Shown here one piece after another: positions 2,311 to 12,013 of a stretch of DNA of 34,318 bases (within the stretch, counting starts at the first letter, position 1; each line of letters starts with the position of its first letter). The stretch is from NCBI GenBank assembly GCA_030530785.1, contig JAUMUJ010000023.1:1-34318 (forward strand). Direction: 5' to 3'. The stretch is from Moraxella sp. Lineage in GTDB: Bacteria; Pseudomonadota; Gammaproteobacteria; Pseudomonadales; Moraxellaceae. The translations under genes were made by a program, and so were the position numbers. The notes beneath the pieces are model-generated. The model saw only the letters and a list, made by a program, of their open reading frames with translations, ran no database searches and had not been told where the DNA came from.

Positions 2311-3309
2311 ATGAATACCAAGAAAATAGGCTTCTTAGAAACCAGATATTCTTTTTATGATAATGATAGCCATACAATCAATGCTTTTGTTAGAAATCAG
2401 TGCGAAAAAGAAATTCTAGCGATTGCACAAGAGGTATTTAAAGTAATGGGCTTAGATAAAAAACTCACTATCGAAATAACACCATCTAGAAAAGGTTCTT
2501 ATGTTGATTTCTTTATATTTTTAGTTAACCATACTAAATTTCCAGAAATACTCTTGGCTGGACTAGCCGTTATAGCAGGACTCATGTCTATATCAAGGGA
2601 AACAAAACTAGATACAGAGCTAAAAAACAAACAGATAGAAAGCATTAATTTGGATATTATTAAAAAAACATTAGAAATACAAGAAATGACCGCCAAATCG
2701 AAAAAAGAAGAAGATTTGATTTCAAAAATAGAAGAATTGGTTAGATTAAATTATGATAATCTAGCTTACAACCCTATTATCTCTCGTCATATTTCAAATT
2801 TTTACAAGCATGTATTGGATTATGAAAAAATAGAGCATATGGAGTACACGCCCTATGATCAGCACCAACAACCCATAACCAAAACAAGAGTTGTTTATCG
2901 AGAACAATTTGAAAGCTTTATCATAACAACTTCCGAAGATGAGCAGATTGATACTGACGCAAAAATTTATATACACTCACCTGTGCTGGTTAAAGGAAAA
3001 AGACATTGGAGTGGTTTCTATACACTCGAAGAAAAAGCAATTAATTTTTCAATGCTTGATAAGGAATTTAAAGAAGATGTTACCAATGGAACTATTAATT
3101 TTAGCAACGGTTCTTTCATATATGCTGTATTAAGAAAAACTATCAAGTATGACGAGCTTGGAAACGTAAAAAGCCAAAATTATGCTGTTGAGGAAGTTAA
3201 GCAAATATCCAATGACAATAATTACCACTACAATAAAAAACGCAGTAAAGACCATCAATCTTTAAAAGAAAAAACAAAAAAGCAGTTTAGTCTTGACTTT
3301 GAAACCTAA
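2311..3309 (+). CDS. Unknown membrane-anchored protein with coiled coil
   Basis: A 332-residue protein I do not recognise by name. Residues 1-65 form a small soluble region ending in a GSYVDFFIFL segment. Residues about 77-93 (ILLAGLAVIAGLMSI) are a single hydrophobic membrane-length helix. Residues about 97-145 are charged and heptad-like, probably a coiled coil. The C-terminal half is soluble and beta-rich by composition; the stretch with HWSGFYTLEEKAINFSMLD, a following NGTINFSNGS and YDELGN resembles a tail I associate with uncharacterised bacterial proteins of scattered distribution, but I cannot name a domain. It ends in a lysine-rich tail. The gene is visibly more AT-rich than its neighbours, has its own strong promoter and sits alone between housekeeping genes, consistent with acquisition by transfer. 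A defence role is possible but nothing catalytic supports it. Confidence 0.85.
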   Translation: MNTKKIGFLETRYSFYDNDSHTINAFVRNQCEKEILAIAQEVFKVMGLDKKLTIEITPSRKGSYVDFFIFLVNHTKFPEILLAGLAVIAGLMSISRETKLDTELKNKQIESINLDIIKKTLEIQEMTAKSKKEEDLISKIEELVRLNYDNLAYNPIISRHISNFYKHVLDYEKIEHMEYTPYDQHQQPITKTRVVYREQFESFIITTSEDEQIDTDAKIYIHSPVLVKGKRHWSGFYTLEEKAINFSMLDKEFKEDVTNGTINFSNGSFIYAVLRKTIKYDELGNVKSQNYAVEEVKQISNDNNYHYNKKRSKDHQSLKEKTKKQFSLDFET

Positions 3310-5314: not shown

Positions 5315-5507
5315 GATTACTCCATTTGGTAAAACAAAACCAATCAGTTTTATTATACAATATAACCTTGATGTCTCTATGGGTATTATGACGGTTTTTT
5401 ATCACTTTATGTAACAATACTGTTTTTGTTAGTAAGATAAGACAGTTTTGGCTTGTAAATCATCACAAAACCCCCATTTATGGCAAAAATTTTATACGGA
5501 TTTACTC

Positions 5508-7601
5508 ATGACAGACCCCATTCTTTATCAACACCCCACCCTTGACGACCGCCTACATCTTGTGGACTTTGGCAAAACAGATGCAAGCACACTCAAAAAC
5601 TTGGTTGAGCAAAATTTAAAGGTTGCCGATGAGTTTTTGAACAACCTGCCAGCCACAGACGACCCGACAGTCGCCCTTGATATCATTGGTCAATTTAACC
5701 GTTTAAATTTAATGCTCAACCGCAGTTTTGGCATACTGTCGCACCTAAACAGCGTGGTGTCTGGCCCAGAGATTCGCACCGCCCATCATGACGTACTGCC
5801 CGCCCTGTCAGCATTTTCCACCAAAACAGGGCAATCGGTCGGGCTGTATCAGCTGTATAAACTCATCAATGACAATTTGGATAAACTTGGGGCGGACAAT
5901 GCCCTAAGACGAGCGGTGGAGCTTGCCTTACAAGGCTTTACGCTGTCGGGGGTTGCCTTAGATGATGACAAAAAAGCACGCTTTGGTGAGATTTCTGCTC
6001 GCTTATCGGTTTTGTCCGCCAAATTTTCAGACAATACCCTAGACGCCACCCAAGCCTTCGCCCTGCCCCTAACTGCCGAGCAAATCCAAGGCATTCCCCC
6101 AAGTGGTCTTGCCCTGTTAAAATCAGCAGGCGACATCTATAAGGTCAAACACCCCAACACCGTGCTTGCTACCGATTATGTCGCCACGCTTGATGTGCCG
6201 ATGTACTTGGCGGTCATGCAATATGCCGATGACCGCACGCTCCGTGAGACACTCTACCACGCCTACAACACTCGTGCCAGTGGCGTATGCAGTTATGGAC
6301 ATACCGAATTTGATAATGGCGACATCATGAGCCAAATACTCGCCCTACGCCAAGAAAAAGCCAAATTGCTTGGCTTTGACGATTACACCCAAGTATCACT
6401 CGCTGGCAAAATGGCAAACGACAAAGATGAGATTAAAACCTTTTTAAAAACGCTCGCTCATCACGCCACGCCTTTTGCCAAGTCAGATTTGGCGGACATG
6501 GAAATTTTAGGTAAAACACTTGGGCTTGATAAGGTTGAGCCGTGGGATACGCCCTACTTGGCAGAAAAAATCCGCCTTGAAAAATACAACCTAAACAGCG
6601 ATGAGCTTCGCCCTTATTTTCCACTACCTGTGGTGCTTGACGGCTTATTTACCATCATCGGTAAATTGTTTGATGTCAGTTTTAAAGACCGCACAAGCGA
6701 AGTTCCACGCTGGCATGATGACGTACAATTTTTTGAACTTCATGACAAAGATGGCTTAATTGGTGGGCTATATCTTGACTTATTTGCTCGCACGGGCAAG
6801 CGTGGCGGAGCGTGGCTATCAAGCTTTCAAGAAAAACACCAAGACAGCAAGATTGAGCAACTCCCTGTGGGCTTTATCGTGGGTAATTTTTCGCCTGCGG
6901 TGGGCGATTTGCCAAGCCTTTTGACCTTTGATGAAGTTACCACGCTCTTTCACGAATTTGGGCACGGCTTACACCATCTGCTTACCAAAATTACCCTAAG
7001 CGATGTGGCGGGCATCAGTGGCGTGGAGTGGGACGCTGTGGAGTTGCCCAGTCAATTTATGGAAAATTTTGCCACCGACAAAGACGGCATTGTACTCATC
7101 AGCCGTCATGTAGAAACGGGTGAAGCACTGCCCCAAGAAAAACTGACCGCCCTACTCAACGCCAAAAACTTCCAAAGCGGATTACAAACCCTACGCCAAA
7201 TAGAATTTGGACTGTTTGATTTGTACATTCATGGCAAAGATTTGGCAGATTATGATGAGATTTTGGCGGTGGCAGACAACGTGCGTGATGAAGTTGCCGT
7301 CATCAAACCCCCTGCCAATAACCGCTTTGCCAACACGTTTAGCCACATCTTTGCAGGGGGCTATGCGTCAGGGTATTATTCGTATAAATGGGCAGAACTG
7401 TTGTCGGCGGACGCTTTTGGTAAATTTGAAAGCAATGTCAGCGATGAGCATGGCGTGTTTGACCCCGCCATAGGCGAACTGTTTAAAAGCGAAATCCTAC
7501 AAATGGGCGGTTCTCGCCCTGCCAAAGACAGCTTTGTCACCTTTATGGGGCGCGATGCTGACATGGGGGCATTACTGCGTCATAGTGGGTTTGTCAAATA
7601 A
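5508..7601 (+). CDS. prlC: Oligopeptidase A, M3 family zinc metallopeptidase
   Basis: Thimet-type oligopeptidase that degrades short cytosolic peptides, including cleaved signal peptides. The zinc motif HEFGH lies at residues 482-486 (TLFHEFGHGLHHLL), followed by GISGVEWDAVELPSQF, which supplies the third zinc ligand Glu and the substrate loop. The C-terminal FSHIFAGGYASGYYSYKWAE is also diagnostic of M3 peptidases. I chose the ATG at 5508 (697 residues, near the usual about 680) because the protein then begins MTDPILYQHP. A TTG at 5448 would add 20 residues that look non-homologous. In other gammaproteobacteria this gene is followed by yheV; here an effector module separates the two. A weak hairpin follows the stop. 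Confidence 0.95.
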   Translation: MTDPILYQHPTLDDRLHLVDFGKTDASTLKNLVEQNLKVADEFLNNLPATDDPTVALDIIGQFNRLNLMLNRSFGILSHLNSVVSGPEIRTAHHDVLPALSAFSTKTGQSVGLYQLYKLINDNLDKLGADNALRRAVELALQGFTLSGVALDDDKKARFGEISARLSVLSAKFSDNTLDATQAFALPLTAEQIQGIPPSGLALLKSAGDIYKVKHPNTVLATDYVATLDVPMYLAVMQYADDRTLRETLYHAYNTRASGVCSYGHTEFDNGDIMSQILALRQEKAKLLGFDDYTQVSLAGKMANDKDEIKTFLKTLAHHATPFAKSDLADMEILGKTLGLDKVEPWDTPYLAEKIRLEKYNLNSDELRPYFPLPVVLDGLFTIIGKLFDVSFKDRTSEVPRWHDDVQFFELHDKDGLIGGLYLDLFARTGKRGGAWLSSFQEKHQDSKIEQLPVGFIVGNFSPAVGDLPSLLTFDEVTTLFHEFGHGLHHLLTKITLSDVAGISGVEWDAVELPSQFMENFATDKDGIVLISRHVETGEALPQEKLTALLNAKNFQSGLQTLRQIEFGLFDLYIHGKDLADYDEILAVADNVRDEVAVIKPPANNRFANTFSHIFAGGYASGYYSYKWAELLSADAFGKFESNVSDEHGVFDPAIGELFKSEILQMGGSRPAKDSFVTFMGRDADMGALLRHSGFVK

Positions 7602-7627
7602 TCATGGCACAATAACTGCAAAATCAG

Positions 7628-7658
7628 TAGCCACGCCCACCAAAAATGCGTGTGGCTA
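7628..7658 (+). terminator. possible weak terminator after prlC
   Basis: TAGCCAC (7628-7634) pairs with GTGGCTA (7652-7658) around a 17-base loop. No uridine run follows, so termination here is uncertain. Confidence 0.35.
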
Positions 7659-7682
7659 TTATGCCAATAATGGTGCGTCTGA

Positions 7683-7711
7683 TTGATTTATTTGCCATAA
7701 TCACCTATAAT
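7683..7711 (+). promoter_or_regulatory. sigma-70 promoter of the effector gene
   Basis: TTGATT (7683-7688), 17-base spacer and TATAAT (7706-7711), 32 bases before the ATG at 7744, with AGGGC as ribosome site in between. The effector-immunity pair therefore has its own promoter. Confidence 0.75.
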
Positions 7712-7743
7712 CATGTTTTTTCTCATCATTTTAGGGCAAATAA

Positions 7744-9582
7744 ATGTCTGTTGCTCGTTACTATATTTTAGAAAGCGACACAACCACAGCAGGGGGCATC
7801 GTCCAAAAAACCACCAATCCGCTCTCTTTTAAAGTCTATGGCAAAGAACAAAGCCATGTCGGTGATGACGTTTGGTGTCCTGCTTGTGGGTCTATGGGGA
7901 AAATAGCCCCTGCTGGTCCTAGACTAAATACATCAGTCGGTGGTCGTATGCCCGCTCTTAATGATGACCTATGTCTGTGTAAATGCAGTCCACCACCCAA
8001 ACTTATCAACTCCCAAACCAGTTTTAAAGAAATCATTGACGATAACACACTTACCAAATACCAACAAGCCAAAGAGCAATATCTGCAATCAAAACAAAAC
8101 AGCATAACCAACACCGCCCAAACAGACGATGATGAACTGCCAAACTTTACCGTGCATTTTAGACGTCCTGATGATTATCAAGGAGAGTATGAGTTTGATT
8201 GGCTAAGAGATGAATATGTGTATAATGTCAGCTTGGCAGACGGTAGCGTGCAGGGGAATATAGTAGGTGTTTCTCTGCATAGAACCAATCTTATACAGCC
8301 CATTATGAATGAATATATAACCTACCAGAATAATCCCGTATCATTTATAGACGACTTTATCTTCAATCAATCAGATTATGTACCAGCTTGGCTATCTATT
8401 TTTGCCAAAGGTCAGATAGACGATGTTTATCTATCAAATGTCAATCTGCATTTGCAAATAGAGCAAGATGAAACGCATGGCAGTACACCATTAACAGATG
8501 ATGGCACGATGATTTTGTTTGAATGCAGTCAAGGGCTTGAAGCACAAAGCACCCTAACACTTGCTGACTATCTAAAAAATGCCAAACGACAAAAAATTGA
8601 GTTGGTGGCAAGCAGTCTTGCGATGTCAAGTAAAAAAATATATCGCTACACCAATACAACATTTAGCATCAATATCACATGTACCCAACCCATTGATGAG
8701 TTGGGCTATGTCAAAATATTTGCTCAAAAACCCAATGGCAAGAAAAAACAAGTGGGACTACTCTGCGTCTATCCTAATAACGACATTCCCACTGCGGTCA
8801 TTCAGCCTGTGGTGTGGATAACCACTCACAATCTGACAATGATAAGCCATCCTCAAAGCATTCTTAGTGTGGGTAGAGCTTTTATTCCTTATGGTAAAAT
8901 CCAAACCGCTTTGTTTAATCAGGCACTCATCAAAGCACAAATCAATGATTATCTTGCCATCAATCTACCAGACAAAAAAGTATACATTGGTGCAAAAGGG
9001 GCAGTTTTGGACATACCGCACTCCCTAGACCAAGAGATTAGCAACTATCTAACCCAATATCCATCCCAAGCCAATGTCAGCGACCAGAGTATCTTGATGG
9101 ATACAAGAAATCTCTATCATAACATCATAAGCAACATACCTGAACTGTCCGACAAAAAGCAAAAGTTTCATCAAACAACCCATATTGTATTTACAGACTA
9201 CCCAAAAAAATATCAAGAAGGCAATACAATTATGACAACCCATGGGGAGGCAGAACCCATAGGAAAAAACCCAATGGACTGTACCTTGGGAGGTTGTACT
9301 TATTGGGGTAATTTTTGCCTAACCTATGACCGCCCTAATAATGATGAAGGGTTACGCACAACCGTACATGAGTTAGGACATACCTTAGGATTGGAACATA
9401 CATTTAATGACGCAAGTTTATTTCTTTTAAGACAAGGACTTACCGACAATTTGTTGGATTACACCAAAGACGAATTTGGCAATGATAGCCCATATTTAGG
9501 TAAGCAATGGGCATTATTCAAATGGCAATGGGACATCATCCACAAAGACAACCATCTTATCAAATACTATGGGGCATTCTAA
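7744..9582 (+). CDS. PAAR-like domain zinc-metallopeptidase, probable T6SS effector
   Basis: A 612-residue probable type VI secretion toxin. Residues about 5-88 form a PAAR-like tip domain: YYILESDTTTAGG, then VGDDVWCPACG and GGRMPALNDDLCLCKC, with cysteines 45, 48, 77, 79 and 81 likely to bind metal. Residues about 134-345 form a middle region (FTVHFRRPDDYQGEYEFDWL) of the kind found in PAAR effectors. The C-terminal domain from about 350 holds HELGHTLGLEH at 542-552, the full metzincin HExxHxxGxxH signature with three His ligands and a catalytic Glu. TDNLLDYT at 567-574 and GKQWALFKWQWDII near 586-599 follow. No signal peptide is present, as expected for T6SS cargo. The stop overlaps the start of the candidate immunity gene (TAATG). 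No VgrG or Tss gene lies in the window. The role as effector is inferred; the metallopeptidase motif is seen directly. Confidence 0.88.
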   Translation: MSVARYYILESDTTTAGGIVQKTTNPLSFKVYGKEQSHVGDDVWCPACGSMGKIAPAGPRLNTSVGGRMPALNDDLCLCKCSPPPKLINSQTSFKEIIDDNTLTKYQQAKEQYLQSKQNSITNTAQTDDDELPNFTVHFRRPDDYQGEYEFDWLRDEYVYNVSLADGSVQGNIVGVSLHRTNLIQPIMNEYITYQNNPVSFIDDFIFNQSDYVPAWLSIFAKGQIDDVYLSNVNLHLQIEQDETHGSTPLTDDGTMILFECSQGLEAQSTLTLADYLKNAKRQKIELVASSLAMSSKKIYRYTNTTFSINITCTQPIDELGYVKIFAQKPNGKKKQVGLLCVYPNNDIPTAVIQPVVWITTHNLTMISHPQSILSVGRAFIPYGKIQTALFNQALIKAQINDYLAINLPDKKVYIGAKGAVLDIPHSLDQEISNYLTQYPSQANVSDQSILMDTRNLYHNIISNIPELSDKKQKFHQTTHIVFTDYPKKYQEGNTIMTTHGEAEPIGKNPMDCTLGGCTYWGNFCLTYDRPNNDEGLRTTVHELGHTLGLEHTFNDASLFLLRQGLTDNLLDYTKDEFGNDSPYLGKQWALFKWQWDIIHKDNHLIKYYGAF

Positions 9583-9587
9583 TGAAA
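9565..9587 (+). repeat. gene-junction repeat, copy 1 (toxin/immunity junction)
   Basis: A 23-base segment spanning the toxin's last codons (YYGAF), its stop and the next ATG, beginning TACTATGGGGCATTCT. It matches 10185-10207 at 21 of 23 positions. Confidence 0.8.
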
Positions 9588-10202
9588 CTTATCACTCTAT
9601 TCTTTTTGGTCGTTTTATTAAGCTTACCCACCATTGGTTATACAAGCCCTGATTTATCTATTAAACCGTATTTTGGCAGAGAGGAATTATTTAGACGTGT
9701 ACAAAAATATGACCAAAATAAGTTTATTCAATACCGAGAGGTAAAGATTGACGAAAACAAATCTACTTACTATTTTAAAGATTATTTTTTCAGTGATGAA
9801 AGAGGTATTATTCAATTGGGTTACCCTTTTTCAGAAAGAGAAGAAATGGTCAATAATCCAGCCTTGTTTAATTATATCTCTGACAAAGAAAAAGAAGAAG
9901 CCATTACCATCATCGCCATTGGTATTGATGATAAAGATAAGGCAAGAGAGATATTTGATAAACTTTATCAAGACTATCTAAAAAATTATCAAGAAAAAAA
10001 GGAGTGTTTAAGATGCACTGTGGAGGCAACATATCATTATCAAGGCATGGAAATTGTTATGTTTGGCATGGTTATTAATAAACAGGATAAGCCAAATGGT
10101 ATCCTTAGATATGATATTGACTATGCCTACATCGTCAATGTTCATTTTTCAAAATTAAAATCCACACCAGAAGATCTTAAAAAGTACTATGGGACATTCT
10201 GA
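9582..10202 (+). CDS. Candidate periplasmic immunity protein
   Basis: A 206-residue protein with a clear Sec signal peptide: MKL followed by a hydrophobic core through residue about 16 and a cleavage site near YTS at 20-22. No lipobox Cys is present. The mature part is charged, with two cysteines spaced ECLRC near residue 146. I do not recognise a domain. The start at 9582 is chosen because its A overlaps the toxin stop in TAATG, giving translational coupling, and because the signal peptide starts exactly there; an in-frame ATG at 9507 lies inside the toxin gene. Overlap with a metallopeptidase effector and predicted periplasmic location point to an immunity protein, implying that the toxin acts in the periplasm. 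This role is inferred. The gene is more AT-rich than the flanking prlC. Confidence 0.8.
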   Translation: MKLITLFFLVVLLSLPTIGYTSPDLSIKPYFGREELFRRVQKYDQNKFIQYREVKIDENKSTYYFKDYFFSDERGIIQLGYPFSEREEMVNNPALFNYISDKEKEEAITIIAIGIDDKDKAREIFDKLYQDYLKNYQEKKECLRCTVEATYHYQGMEIVMFGMVINKQDKPNGILRYDIDYAYIVNVHFSKLKSTPEDLKKYYGTF

Positions 10203-10207
10203 TGAAA
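10185..10207 (+). repeat. gene-junction repeat, copy 2 (immunity/remnant junction)
   Basis: Repeats the 9565-9587 junction with two substitutions: last codons YYGTF, stop overlapping an ATG as TGATG, then AAA. The new ATG opens only MKSL before a stop, so the downstream gene is broken. Confidence 0.8.
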
Positions 10208-10411
10208 TCGCTGTGAAATAGAGTTTTTTAATATCAAAAACCTTAAAACACATGAGAGTATTTCCGCCTTTGATGGTTGCAATGAAAAATACATTCTACA
10301 AAATGAAAAAGTACTACGGTTTTTGTTCGTGGTGAGCCATGCCTACCCATGATGGCTTTCCTACTCACAGATGAGCCTAGAGCGAATGGAAAATTGTGGG
10401 AAGTCTCATGA
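10202..10411 (+). pseudogene. Remnant of a further gene of the effector module
   Basis: The ATG at 10202 overlaps the immunity stop (TGATG) but reads MKSL and stops. From 10206 another frame stays open to the TGA at 10350-10352 with protein-like content (for example HESISAFDGCNEKYILQNEK). A second short frame starts in the overlapping TGATG at 10352 and reads MAFLLTDEPRANGKLWEVS before a stop at 10409-10411. Joined by a frameshift these look like the end of one lost coding sequence, perhaps a second immunity gene. No intact start or domain is recognisable, so this is a tentative call. Confidence 0.4.
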
Positions 10412-10429
10412 AACCATGATAATCAGCCA

Positions 10430-10486: not shown

Positions 10487-10723
10487 ATGAGATACCAGTC
10501 CACCCGCCCAAAACGCCAATTTCTCGCTGGGGTCAAATGCACCCAATGTGGAGCGACAGACACCACCGTACAGGTGCAAATTTTTGAACCCATGCCTGAT
10601 GAATATATTGAGTGTATACAATGTAATCACACTGAACGCCGTCCAAGTGCCGATGATTTATCCAAAATTCAATCAGATAACCCCAATCATGACATCAGCG
10701 TGGTAAGATTTATCCCCAAATAA
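10487..10723 (+). CDS. yheV: YheV-family putative zinc ribbon protein
   Basis: A 78-residue cytosolic protein with two CxxC knuckles, KCTQCG at residues 17-22 and ECIQCN at 42-47, the layout of a one-zinc ribbon. The opening RPKRQFLAGVKC and the closing VVRFIPK match YheV/DUF2387 as known to me; its function is not established. In related bacteria the gene commonly follows prlC. Here about 2.9 kb of effector module lies between them, and yheV has its own promoter. A second hairpin terminator follows at 10747-10786, so it is probably transcribed alone. No strong Shine-Dalgarno is visible before the ATG, and the predicted leader is only about 20 bases. Confidence 0.85.
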   Translation: MRYQSTRPKRQFLAGVKCTQCGATDTTVQVQIFEPMPDEYIECIQCNHTERRPSADDLSKIQSDNPNHDISVVRFIPK

Positions 10724-10855: not shown

Positions 10856-12013
10856 ATGTCAGACCAAAAAAACACCACCGACACCCCAAATATTGATGAC
10901 TACCTTTTAAACATCAATATAGAAGATAACAACGCCCCATCGGACAATAAGATGGAGCAAGGGCTTGATCTGGACTTTTTAAATCAGTTAGGTGTTGAAA
11001 CTGACACCCAAAAATCAGCCCCCAACACACCCGCTGATGAATTCAGTCTTGACAGTCTAAGCTCCCCCACCCAAGATGTACAAACCCCAAAAGGTGATGA
11101 TAATTTAGACTTTTTAAACCAAACCAACACCCAAGACAACACGCCCAGTCTTACCGACATTGCAGGTGTGGCCACCATTGGAGCGGGCGTAGGAGCAGTA
11201 ACAAATGCTGTCGCTGACACCGCCAAAGACACCGCCAAAAAAGGCAAAGGATTTTTTAGCGGGCGTTTTGGCAAAAAACAAAAGCCAGCACCCGCCCAAA
11301 GCACCGACAAAAAAGACAGCTTTACTGAGACCTTATTGGCAAATAAAAACACCAAAAAAGGGCTATTTAGTCGCCTAAATAAAAAAGAACAACCCACCCC
11401 AACGGATGCAACTTCTGCCCCCACAGCCACGCTCACCAAAGCCAAACAGGACAAAAAATCCCCCTTTGGTGGCTTTGGCAAAAAAACTGCCACCGCCCCA
11501 AAAACCAAAGCCCCAAAAACCCCAAAAGCCACCAGTCCTGATACCAAAAAGAAAAATCAGCTTTTAATTGGTGCGTTGGTATGCTTGGCACTGCTTGCGT
11601 TGGTTGCGTATTTATTCTTAAATAACACCAGCTTAATCAATACGCCCGCCCCCACTCCTACTCCTGTGGCGACACCGGCTCCGGCTCCTGCTCCTGCTCC
11701 TGCCAACGAAAATATTCTGCCTAATACCACCCCCACCATCAATCCTGATGAGATTTTAAATGCCGAAATCCCATCTGACCCTGCATTAGTCAAAGAAGAG
11801 ATTGATCGCCTAAATGACACAGGGGCAAGGCTGGACGAACAAGGCAAAATCATTGAAGAGCAACTGACCATCATGGAAGATTTGACCACCGCTAAGGCAG
11901 AACAAATCGCCCTACTAGAACAGCAAATCGCTGAACTAGAAAAACAAAAAGCCAATGTGGCAACCCCCACCCCCAGCGAACAACCCGCTCCGACACCTGC
12001 CCCACAGCAGTAA
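10856..12013 (+). CDS. Unknown single-pass membrane protein with repetitive disordered regions
   Basis: A 385-residue protein I do not recognise. Residues 1-100 are acidic and disordered, with LDFLNQ twice (39-44 and 84-89). Residues 101-122 are Gly/Ala-rich. Three basic repeats follow, near 129-141 (KGKGFFSGRFGKK), 167-177 (KKGLFSRLNKK) and 200-210 (KKSPFGGFGKK). Residues 236-255 are a single transmembrane helix after a KKKNQ stop, predicting the basic part in the cytoplasm. Beyond the membrane come Pro/Ala repeats (264-283), a coiled coil (about 311-365) and another Pro-rich tail. The architecture recalls envelope-spanning or scaffold proteins of the TonB/FimV type, but no named domain supports that. 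AAGG precedes the ATG. A strong bidirectional terminator follows. It lies alone between yheV and a convergent operon. Confidence 0.85.
   Translation: MSDQKNTTDTPNIDDYLLNINIEDNNAPSDNKMEQGLDLDFLNQLGVETDTQKSAPNTPADEFSLDSLSSPTQDVQTPKGDDNLDFLNQTNTQDNTPSLTDIAGVATIGAGVGAVTNAVADTAKDTAKKGKGFFSGRFGKKQKPAPAQSTDKKDSFTETLLANKNTKKGLFSRLNKKEQPTPTDATSAPTATLTKAKQDKKSPFGGFGKKTATAPKTKAPKTPKATSPDTKKKNQLLIGALVCLALLALVAYLFLNNTSLINTPAPTPTPVATPAPAPAPAPANENILPNTTPTINPDEILNAEIPSDPALVKEEIDRLNDTGARLDEQGKIIEEQLTIMEDLTTAKAEQIALLEQQIAELEKQKANVATPTPSEQPAPTPAPQQ
11676..11703 (+). repeat. in-frame hexanucleotide tandem repeat (Ala-Pro)
   Basis: About four and a half units of GGCTCC/TGCTCC inside the 10856 gene encode alternating Ala-Pro just outside the membrane helix. 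Slippage would change linker length without shifting the frame. Confidence 0.6.

What the first reader, a model, noticed from the sequence alone, without database searches (positions are those of the whole stretch)
7744..10202. Orphan T6SS-type PAAR-metallopeptidase effector with an overlapping secreted immunity gene
Seen: a Cys-rich PAAR-like N-terminus (C45, C48, C77, C79, C81), a middle region and HELGHTLGLEH at 542-552, then a TAATG overlap with a gene for a Sec-exported 206-residue protein. Known: PAAR domains cap the T6SS spike and carry toxins; HExxHxxGxxH binds catalytic zinc. Inferred: a periplasm-acting protease toxin with its immunity protein. I recognise no family for the immunity protein, so this pair could be undescribed.
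Basis: partly seen in the sequence, partly recalled or inferred. Interest (0 to 1): 0.8.

Follow-up and report, generated by a model that had tools for sequence, protein, structure and literature searches.

The report
Orphan PAAR-metzincin toxin with immunity gene
A Moraxella genome carries a small island that seems to encode a protein-cutting weapon of the kind bacteria inject into rivals, plus its likely antidote, although the injection machine itself was not found there.

Summary
The window encodes a 612-aa PAAR protein with a C-terminal HExxHxxGxxH peptidase and, overlapping by TAATG, an exported 206-aa protein. The peptidase looks like a metzincin: 24 aligned relatives keep the zinc ligands; Met-turn Met is kept in 22, replaced by Leu here and in one other. 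Relatives occur in Moraxella, Psychrobacter, Gilliamella and Bacteroidota, several beside VgrG or DUF4123 or fused to DUF4280; in two Moraxella genomes the pair follows a ClpV-like gene in a T6SS region. In the loci collected, the 206-aa family lies downstream of toxin ORFs (33 of 34 hits, 20 of 21 distinct places). This supports an antibacterial T6SS toxin-immunity pair, untested at the bench. The host assembly (86.9% complete) shows none of five T6SS markers. M. lacunata, with a T6SS, has a broken copy at the same prlC-yheV site with the same promoter; 18 of 20 Moraxella genomes with both genes are empty there. A second carrier, by inference M. boevrei, listed 100% complete, lacks TssC and TssF hits. 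So it looks like an orphan island in a T6SS-free lineage. M12/Reprolysin-type T6SS candidates are already in print: a new variant of a known kind.

The parts
7605..10425 (.). Island between prlC (oligopeptidase A gene, 5448-7601) and the yheV-like gene (10487-10723); limits approximate, by comparison with the empty sites of G001 and G018
   Evidence: In 18 of 20 genus genomes with both genes the gap is 8-519 bp; G000 has 2888 and G002 3638
7683..7711 (+). Probable sigma-70 promoter TTGATT-N17-TATAAT, 61 bp before the toxin ATG
   Evidence: Same hexamers and spacing 59 bp before the start of M. lacunata's copy at the same site; not before the 9 other PAAR starts listed, one of which had only 82 bp of upstream DNA
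7744..9582 (+). PAAR-metzincin protein, 612 aa, probable T6SS effector
7777..7986 (+). PAAR domain, residues 12-81, with Cys 45, 48, 77, 79, 81
   Evidence: Pfam PF05488 over cut-off; 79.8% identical over 99 residues to the PAAR protein encoded next to tssC in G001
8137..9000 (+). Conserved middle region (about residues 132-420) opening with a signature like HFRRP..Y.G.Y.FDWLRDEY
   Evidence: In the 24 rows of A2 with variations, with or without PAAR; no Pfam family over cut-off there
9367..9399 (+). Zinc-binding motif HELGHTLGLEH, residues 542-552
   Evidence: H542, E543, H546, H552 in 24 of 24 rows
9442..9462 (+). Met-turn TDNLLDY, residues 567-573, Leu571 in place of Met
   Evidence: Met in 22 of 24 rows, Leu in the window and in L117
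9580..9584 (+). TAATG stop/start overlap of the two genes
   Evidence: four-base overlaps also in L137 and L049
9582..10202 (+). Probable immunity protein, 206 aa, with a Sec signal peptide judged by eye (about residues 1-22)
   Evidence: 33 of 34 profile hits of its family lie downstream of a toxin ORF on the same strand
9554..9587 (+). 34-nt repeat copy 1: toxin 3' end and immunity start
10174..10207 (+). 34-nt repeat copy 2: immunity 3' end followed by the trace of a further TGATG start; probable recombination scar
   Evidence: 29 of 34 identical; best in 200 Markov sequences 27

Best explanation
The pair is a T6SS effector-immunity unit. PAAR caps the VgrG spike and carries a C-terminal metzincin into the periplasm of a neighbour, where it cuts envelope proteins. 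The 206-aa Sec-exported protein binds it in the producer's periplasm and blocks it. In this genome the unit sits alone in an island with its own promoter, at a site also used in M. lacunata. The most likely history is that an ancestor had a T6SS, or received the island, and that the machine was lost while the pair stayed. Shown: domains, conserved catalytic residues, gene linkage, shared site and promoter, no hit to five T6SS markers in the assembly. Inferred: toxicity, periplasmic target, substrate, binding, loss of the machine.
For: PAAR over the Pfam cut-off. 24-row alignment with invariant zinc ligands and a Met-turn. T6SS context of relatives: of ten proteins picked by eye, nine of nine neighbours or fusions gave VgrG domains (6), DUF4123 (2) or DUF4280 (1); the tenth, a lone metzincin, gave no hit. 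ClpV-like gene, toxin, partner order in G001 and G002. 11 of 13 Moraxellaceae carriers have VipB against 132 of 335 others (Fisher p = 0.0023); without G128, whose match is to the PAAR part only, 10 of 12 against 133 of 336 (p = 0.0046); neither corrected for kinship. Partner family downstream of toxin ORFs in 33 of 34 hits, by my count 20 of 21 distinct places. For 19 of the 23 other rows of A2, in both phyla, the next gene starts with an export-like stretch as judged by eye. Island at the same site in M. lacunata.
Against: No T6SS marker hit in the host genome. Leu at the Met-turn. Exceptions to the downstream-partner rule: L123, L125, L128 and L134, all Bacteroidota. The window's partner is 15-29% identical to nine partner proteins. 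Some toxin ORFs used as anchors are fragments, and the loci had been chosen for the toxin. No structure could be predicted. Substrate unknown.
Confidence: 0.7

Rival explanations
1. The host does have a T6SS, missing from the 86.9% complete assembly, and the pair is a normal working auxiliary cargo.
For: In G001 the VipB, VgrG, Hcp and TssF hits lie within about 27 kb, so one gap could hide all; 11 of 13 family carriers have VipB.
Against: Five markers gave no hit; G241, listed 100% complete, is a second carrier without VipB and TssF hits.
Confidence: 0.2
2. Only the immunity gene is under selection: the island protects a T6SS-free cell against relatives with homologous toxins, and the toxin is a passenger on the way to decay.
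For: No T6SS marker hits; M. lacunata's copy at this site is split; a second PAAR gene of this genome is cut short beside an IS1-type transposase ORF; Leu at the Met-turn.
Against: The toxin frame is open over 612 codons with all zinc ligands; the promoter lies before the toxin.
Confidence: 0.3
3. The metzincin acts on eukaryotic host cells and not on bacteria.
For: Moraxella lives on mucosae and many metzincins act on matrix proteins (both recalled).
Against: An exported partner gene follows in most relatives of both phyla, including Bacteroidota known as marine (habitat recalled; names).
Confidence: 0.07
4. The peptidase is a self-processing domain that releases another toxin.
For: Releasing metallopeptidases are known (PVC-metallopeptidase, passages of PMC3482391).
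Against: It is the last domain of the protein; the partner gene follows directly.
Confidence: 0.04

Closest known systems
VgrG2b C-terminal domain / PA0261 (Tpe-Tpi family), Pseudomonas aeruginosa
   Same: T6SS-delivered zinc metallopeptidase acting in the periplasm, with an exported immunity protein encoded beside it (PMC6899460, passages)
   Different: That enzyme is a thermolysin-like gluzincin with Glu as third ligand, fused to VgrG; here the third ligand is His552, there is a Met-turn region, the fusion is to PAAR, and no DUF4157 hit was listed
M12 metallopeptidase (pfam13688) in VgrG neighbourhood 2 of Acinetobacter
   Same: VgrG of 878-879 aa with DUF4123 and a metallopeptidase (PMC6838775, passages); L154 shows an 878-aa VgrG, DUF4123 and a member of this family
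   Different: A survey row; no PAAR fusion and no immunity family named in the passages seen. That G087 is an Acinetobacter is my inference; the L154 protein itself gave no Pfam hit at E up to 0.001
Reprolysin_4 candidate effector in Salmonella SPI-6
   Same: Metzincin-type motif and a bicistronic partner with signal peptide (PMC10469887, passages)
   Different: 243 aa; homology to this family not tested
Metzincin and TIMP-like pair of a Listeria prophage remnant
   Same: Secreted metzincin next to an inhibitor-like lipoprotein gene (PMC8235301, start of abstract in the listing)
   Different: Gram-positive host, other context
Orphan Rhs toxin ends and C-terminal displacement
   Same: Displaced toxin ends with immunity genes, recombination at shared ends (PMC8125069, passages)
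   Different: Rhs toxins, not PAAR-metzincins

Membership tests
T6SS PAAR effectors (PF05488) | PAAR domain at the N-terminus | tested here: met
   27.8 bits, cut-off 27
T6SS PAAR effectors (PF05488) | T6SS in the same genome | tested here: not met
   0 of 5 marker families hit in G000, 86.9% complete
T6SS PAAR effectors (PF05488) | T6SS-dependent secretion | not testable with these tools
   needs bench work
Metzincins (clan MA(M)) | HExxHxxGxxH zinc motif (definition recalled) | tested here: met
   Residues 542-552; the Gly position is G, S or T among the 24 rows
Metzincins (clan MA(M)) | Met-turn (definition recalled) | tested here: inconclusive
   Met in 22 of 24 rows but Leu in the window protein
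Metzincins (clan MA(M)) | Match over the cut-off of a curated metzincin family | tested here: not met
   Reprolysin_5 25.1 against 27 bits, others lower
Metzincins (clan MA(M)) | Metzincin fold | not testable with these tools
   Structure prediction switched off
VgrG2b / Tpe-Tpi | Gluzincin with Glu third ligand, DUF4157 | tested here: not met
   His552 invariant in 24 rows; no DUF4157 hit listed
Effector-immunity pairs | Partner gene linked to the toxin gene | tested here: met
   33 of 34 hits downstream of a toxin ORF in loci chosen for the toxin
Effector-immunity pairs | Toxicity relieved by the partner | not testable with these tools
   needs bench work

The most novel reading that the evidence does not exclude
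A metzincin toxin family marked by HFRRP..Y.G.Y.FDWLRDEY spans two phyla and several T6SS carriers (PAAR fusion, DUF4280 fusion, VgrG neighbour with DUF4123). In T6SS-free Moraxella its PAAR form persists at fixed chromosomal sites, with its own promoter, as an immunity island that protects against relatives' attack, so that weapon and shield outlive the machine.
Probability: 0.3. Interest if true: 0.65.

Novelty: new variant of a known kind. Interest (0 to 1): 0.5.

Why it matters
It gives a protease-type T6SS toxin family with a sequence signature, an exported partner family without a Pfam or NCBIfam model over cut-off, and natural cases where the pair is kept while the machine was not found. 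That makes testable whether effector islands survive T6SS loss as defence. Moraxella T6SS seems little studied: a passage of PMC6838775 calls the cluster in Moraxella and Neisseria unreported, and a library search for Moraxella lacunata with T6SS found 0 papers.

Tried and rejected
Tried with little gain: plasmid collection, 16 records, all matching the PAAR part only, in Burkholderia (11) and Paraburkholderia (5), none covering 80%. PDB sequence search: weak adamalysin and MMP matches for the toxin, E 0.012 at best; two purple acid phosphatase sequences at E 0.85 for the partner. IMG/VR scan: 2 loci on one contig, one with the ClpV-like gene and an effector cut by what looks by eye like an IS transposase, one with an intact member. 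Not searched: phages, E. coli genomes and metagenomes; Neisseria genomes.

Considered and rejected: a VgrG2b-type gluzincin (third ligand His); a releasing peptidase (C-terminal position). Fold comparison was planned and could not be done.

Literature searches for prior description. Eight papers were opened, and in each only the passages returned for my terms were seen: PMC6899460, PMC3482391, PMC6838775, PMC10673891 (M35 domain of VgrG2b), PMC8263058 (six Neisseria cinerea effectors, none described there as a metallopeptidase), PMC10469887, PMC8125069, PMC8651086.

Full report
Observation. PAAR is over the Pfam cut-off; metzincin models (Reprolysin_5, M43, M10 and others) match at or around the motif below their cut-offs. 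The 206-aa protein matches no Pfam model over cut-off (one weak DUF3352 hit, E 0.053) and no NCBIfam model.

Relatives. One scan of genome contigs with a five-row alignment gave 25 loci in Moraxella, Psychrobacter, Gilliamella and Bacteroidota (Aquimarina, Aequorivita, Cochleicola, Chitinophaga, Patiriisocius, Sinomicrobium, Mesonia, Lacinutrix and an unnamed Flavobacteriaceae). I aligned the window protein with 23 full ORFs, 22 from these loci and one from an IMG/VR contig, and left out broken or partial copies (L112, L127, L131, L132, L136). His542, Glu543, His546, His552, Phe554, Asp572 and Tyr573 are invariant. Position 571, the Met of the metzincin Met-turn (the definition is recalled), is Met in 22 of 24 and Leu in the window and in L117. 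The rows share, with variations, an N-terminal signature HFRRP..Y.G.Y.FDWLRDEY.

Delivery context. Of ten proteins picked by eye from relatives' loci, six gave VgrG domains, two DUF4123 and one, a metzincin fusion, DUF4280; the tenth, a lone metzincin, gave no hit at E up to 0.001. Other loci show no such neighbour (for example L114 and L117, as judged by eye). In G001 and G002 the PAAR-metzincin gene overlaps the end of an 883-aa ClpB/ClpV-type ATPase gene, which I call ClpV from context, and is followed by partner genes. The G001 region also encodes TssA, TssB, TssC, TagF, TssJ, TssK, TssL, TssM and PAAR by Pfam. G002 has the contig lengths of Moraxella lacunata NCTC10359, so I use that name. 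G241 has a contig with the length and ORF layout of M. boevrei DSM 14165, an inference.

Partner gene. With the window's protein alone phmmer finds 18 ORFs at E up to 0.01, itself and duplicates of the same records included. After iteration 34 of 1017 ORFs match at E below 1e-4, by my count 21 distinct places. 33 of the 34 (20 of 21 places) lie downstream of a toxin-profile ORF on the same strand, at most 2130 bp away; some of these anchors are toxin fragments; the exception is L049:2207-3214. The loci were chosen for the toxin, so this is linkage within them and not a genome-wide test. Among the 21 places none is from Gilliamella, Bacteroidota or the G087 and G115 loci. For the 23 other rows of A2, the next same-strand gene starts with an export-like stretch or lipobox, judged by eye, in 19; L123 and L125 are followed by a DUF4280-like ORF, L128 by an ORF without such a start, and L134 by no ORF of 80 aa within 400 bp. 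On a crude hydropathy score 18 of 23 chosen downstream genes, the window's included, reach 2.3, against 8 of 30 window ORFs.

Distribution. The family profile hits 13 of 348 Moraxellaceae genomes at E up to 1e-8 and VipB 143 of 348. 11 of the 13 have VipB, against 132 of 335 others (Fisher p = 0.0023). G128's match is to the PAAR part only and G143's match holds three stops; without G128 it is 10 of 12 against 133 of 336 (p = 0.0046). Kinship is not corrected for. The exceptions are G000 and G241. G000 also has no Hcp, Phage_GPD, VasE or TssF hit; G241 no TssF hit. In the genus PAAR is found in 3 of 22 genomes and VipB in 3 of 22, with G001 and G002 in both. G000 is 86.9% complete, so absence is not proof.

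Island. The yheV-like gene was found in 21 of 22 genus genomes; prlC lay beside it in 20 (G003's stretch had none). In 18 of these 20 the gap is 8-519 bp; G000 has 2888 and G002 3638. G002's copy is split and followed by a partner gene and remnants of a second unit. Window and G002 share TTGATT-N17-TATAAT 61 and 59 bp before the start; the nine other PAAR starts listed lack it, one with only 82 bp to look at. The stretch 7744-10202 has 37.9% GC; 109 overlapping windows of that size elsewhere in the window range from 38.8 to 48.8%. The toxin's 3' end with the partner's start is repeated at the partner's 3' end (29 of 34; at most 27 in 200 Markov sequences), and in a ten-row alignment the window partner runs past the end of seven of the nine others, as if a toxin end had been fused on. 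This resembles displaced cassettes described for Rhs toxins (PMC8125069, passages).

Known work. VgrG2b is a periplasmic T6SS metallopeptidase with exported immunity PA0261, but a gluzincin (PMC6899460, passages). An Acinetobacter survey lists an M12 peptidase with VgrG of 878-879 aa and DUF4123 (PMC6838775, passages). L154 of G087, a genus I take for Acinetobacter without a name from any call, shows an 878-aa VgrG, DUF4123 and a member of this family, probably the same thing. A Salmonella survey lists a 243-aa Reprolysin_4 candidate with a signal-peptide partner (PMC10469887, passages). A PAAR survey names M35-like peptidases among PAAR toxins (PMC8651086, passages). A search for Moraxella lacunata with T6SS found 0 papers. 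The find is thus a new variant of a known kind.

Judgement. The toxin-immunity reading is well supported by linkage and context, but toxicity, periplasmic site, substrate and binding are inferences. Whether the pair is still used, or kept for protection only, cannot be decided from sequence.

Noticed in passing
L021 (G000:C27) 83-634: A second PAAR-type gene start in the same genome, open for 71 aa only, followed by an IS1-type transposase ORF (90.3 bits, below that model's cut-off of 100).
   Followed up: partly
L058 7260-8501; L150 10020-10589 and 15265-15822: PAAR effector-like genes in the nuo operon, between nuoB and nuoCD, in both M. lacunata and G241 (inferred M. boevrei); a second one follows nuoCD in G241. 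The PAAR match of L150:10020 is just under cut-off (26.3 against 27 bits).
   Followed up: partly
L049 9760-14728 and L053 2-3918: Runs of short ORFs next to tssC in G001 and G002, some matching the last part of the PAAR domain onward: look like displaced toxin ends.
   Followed up: no
L057 7542-9500: M. lacunata's island toxin is split into pieces; two of them begin with the same short peptide, as if one repeat had inserted twice.
   Followed up: no
G004 (L022, L036): A third Moraxella genome with VipB, Hcp and TssF hits but no PAAR_motif hit at E up to 0.01.
   Followed up: no
L123 and L125, 36 bp downstream of the toxin ORF: In two Aquimarina records the metzincin is followed by a second DUF4280-like ORF of 410 aa instead of an exported partner (family judged by eye).
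   Followed up: no
window 2311-3309: 332-aa protein over the cut-off of NCBIfam's LAPAL putative phage structural protein (62.6 against 60 bits), alone among housekeeping genes.
   Followed up: no
window 10856-12013: 385-aa protein rich in repeats of few residues, with a TraP-like stretch far under cut-off (26.8 against 135 bits).
   Followed up: no
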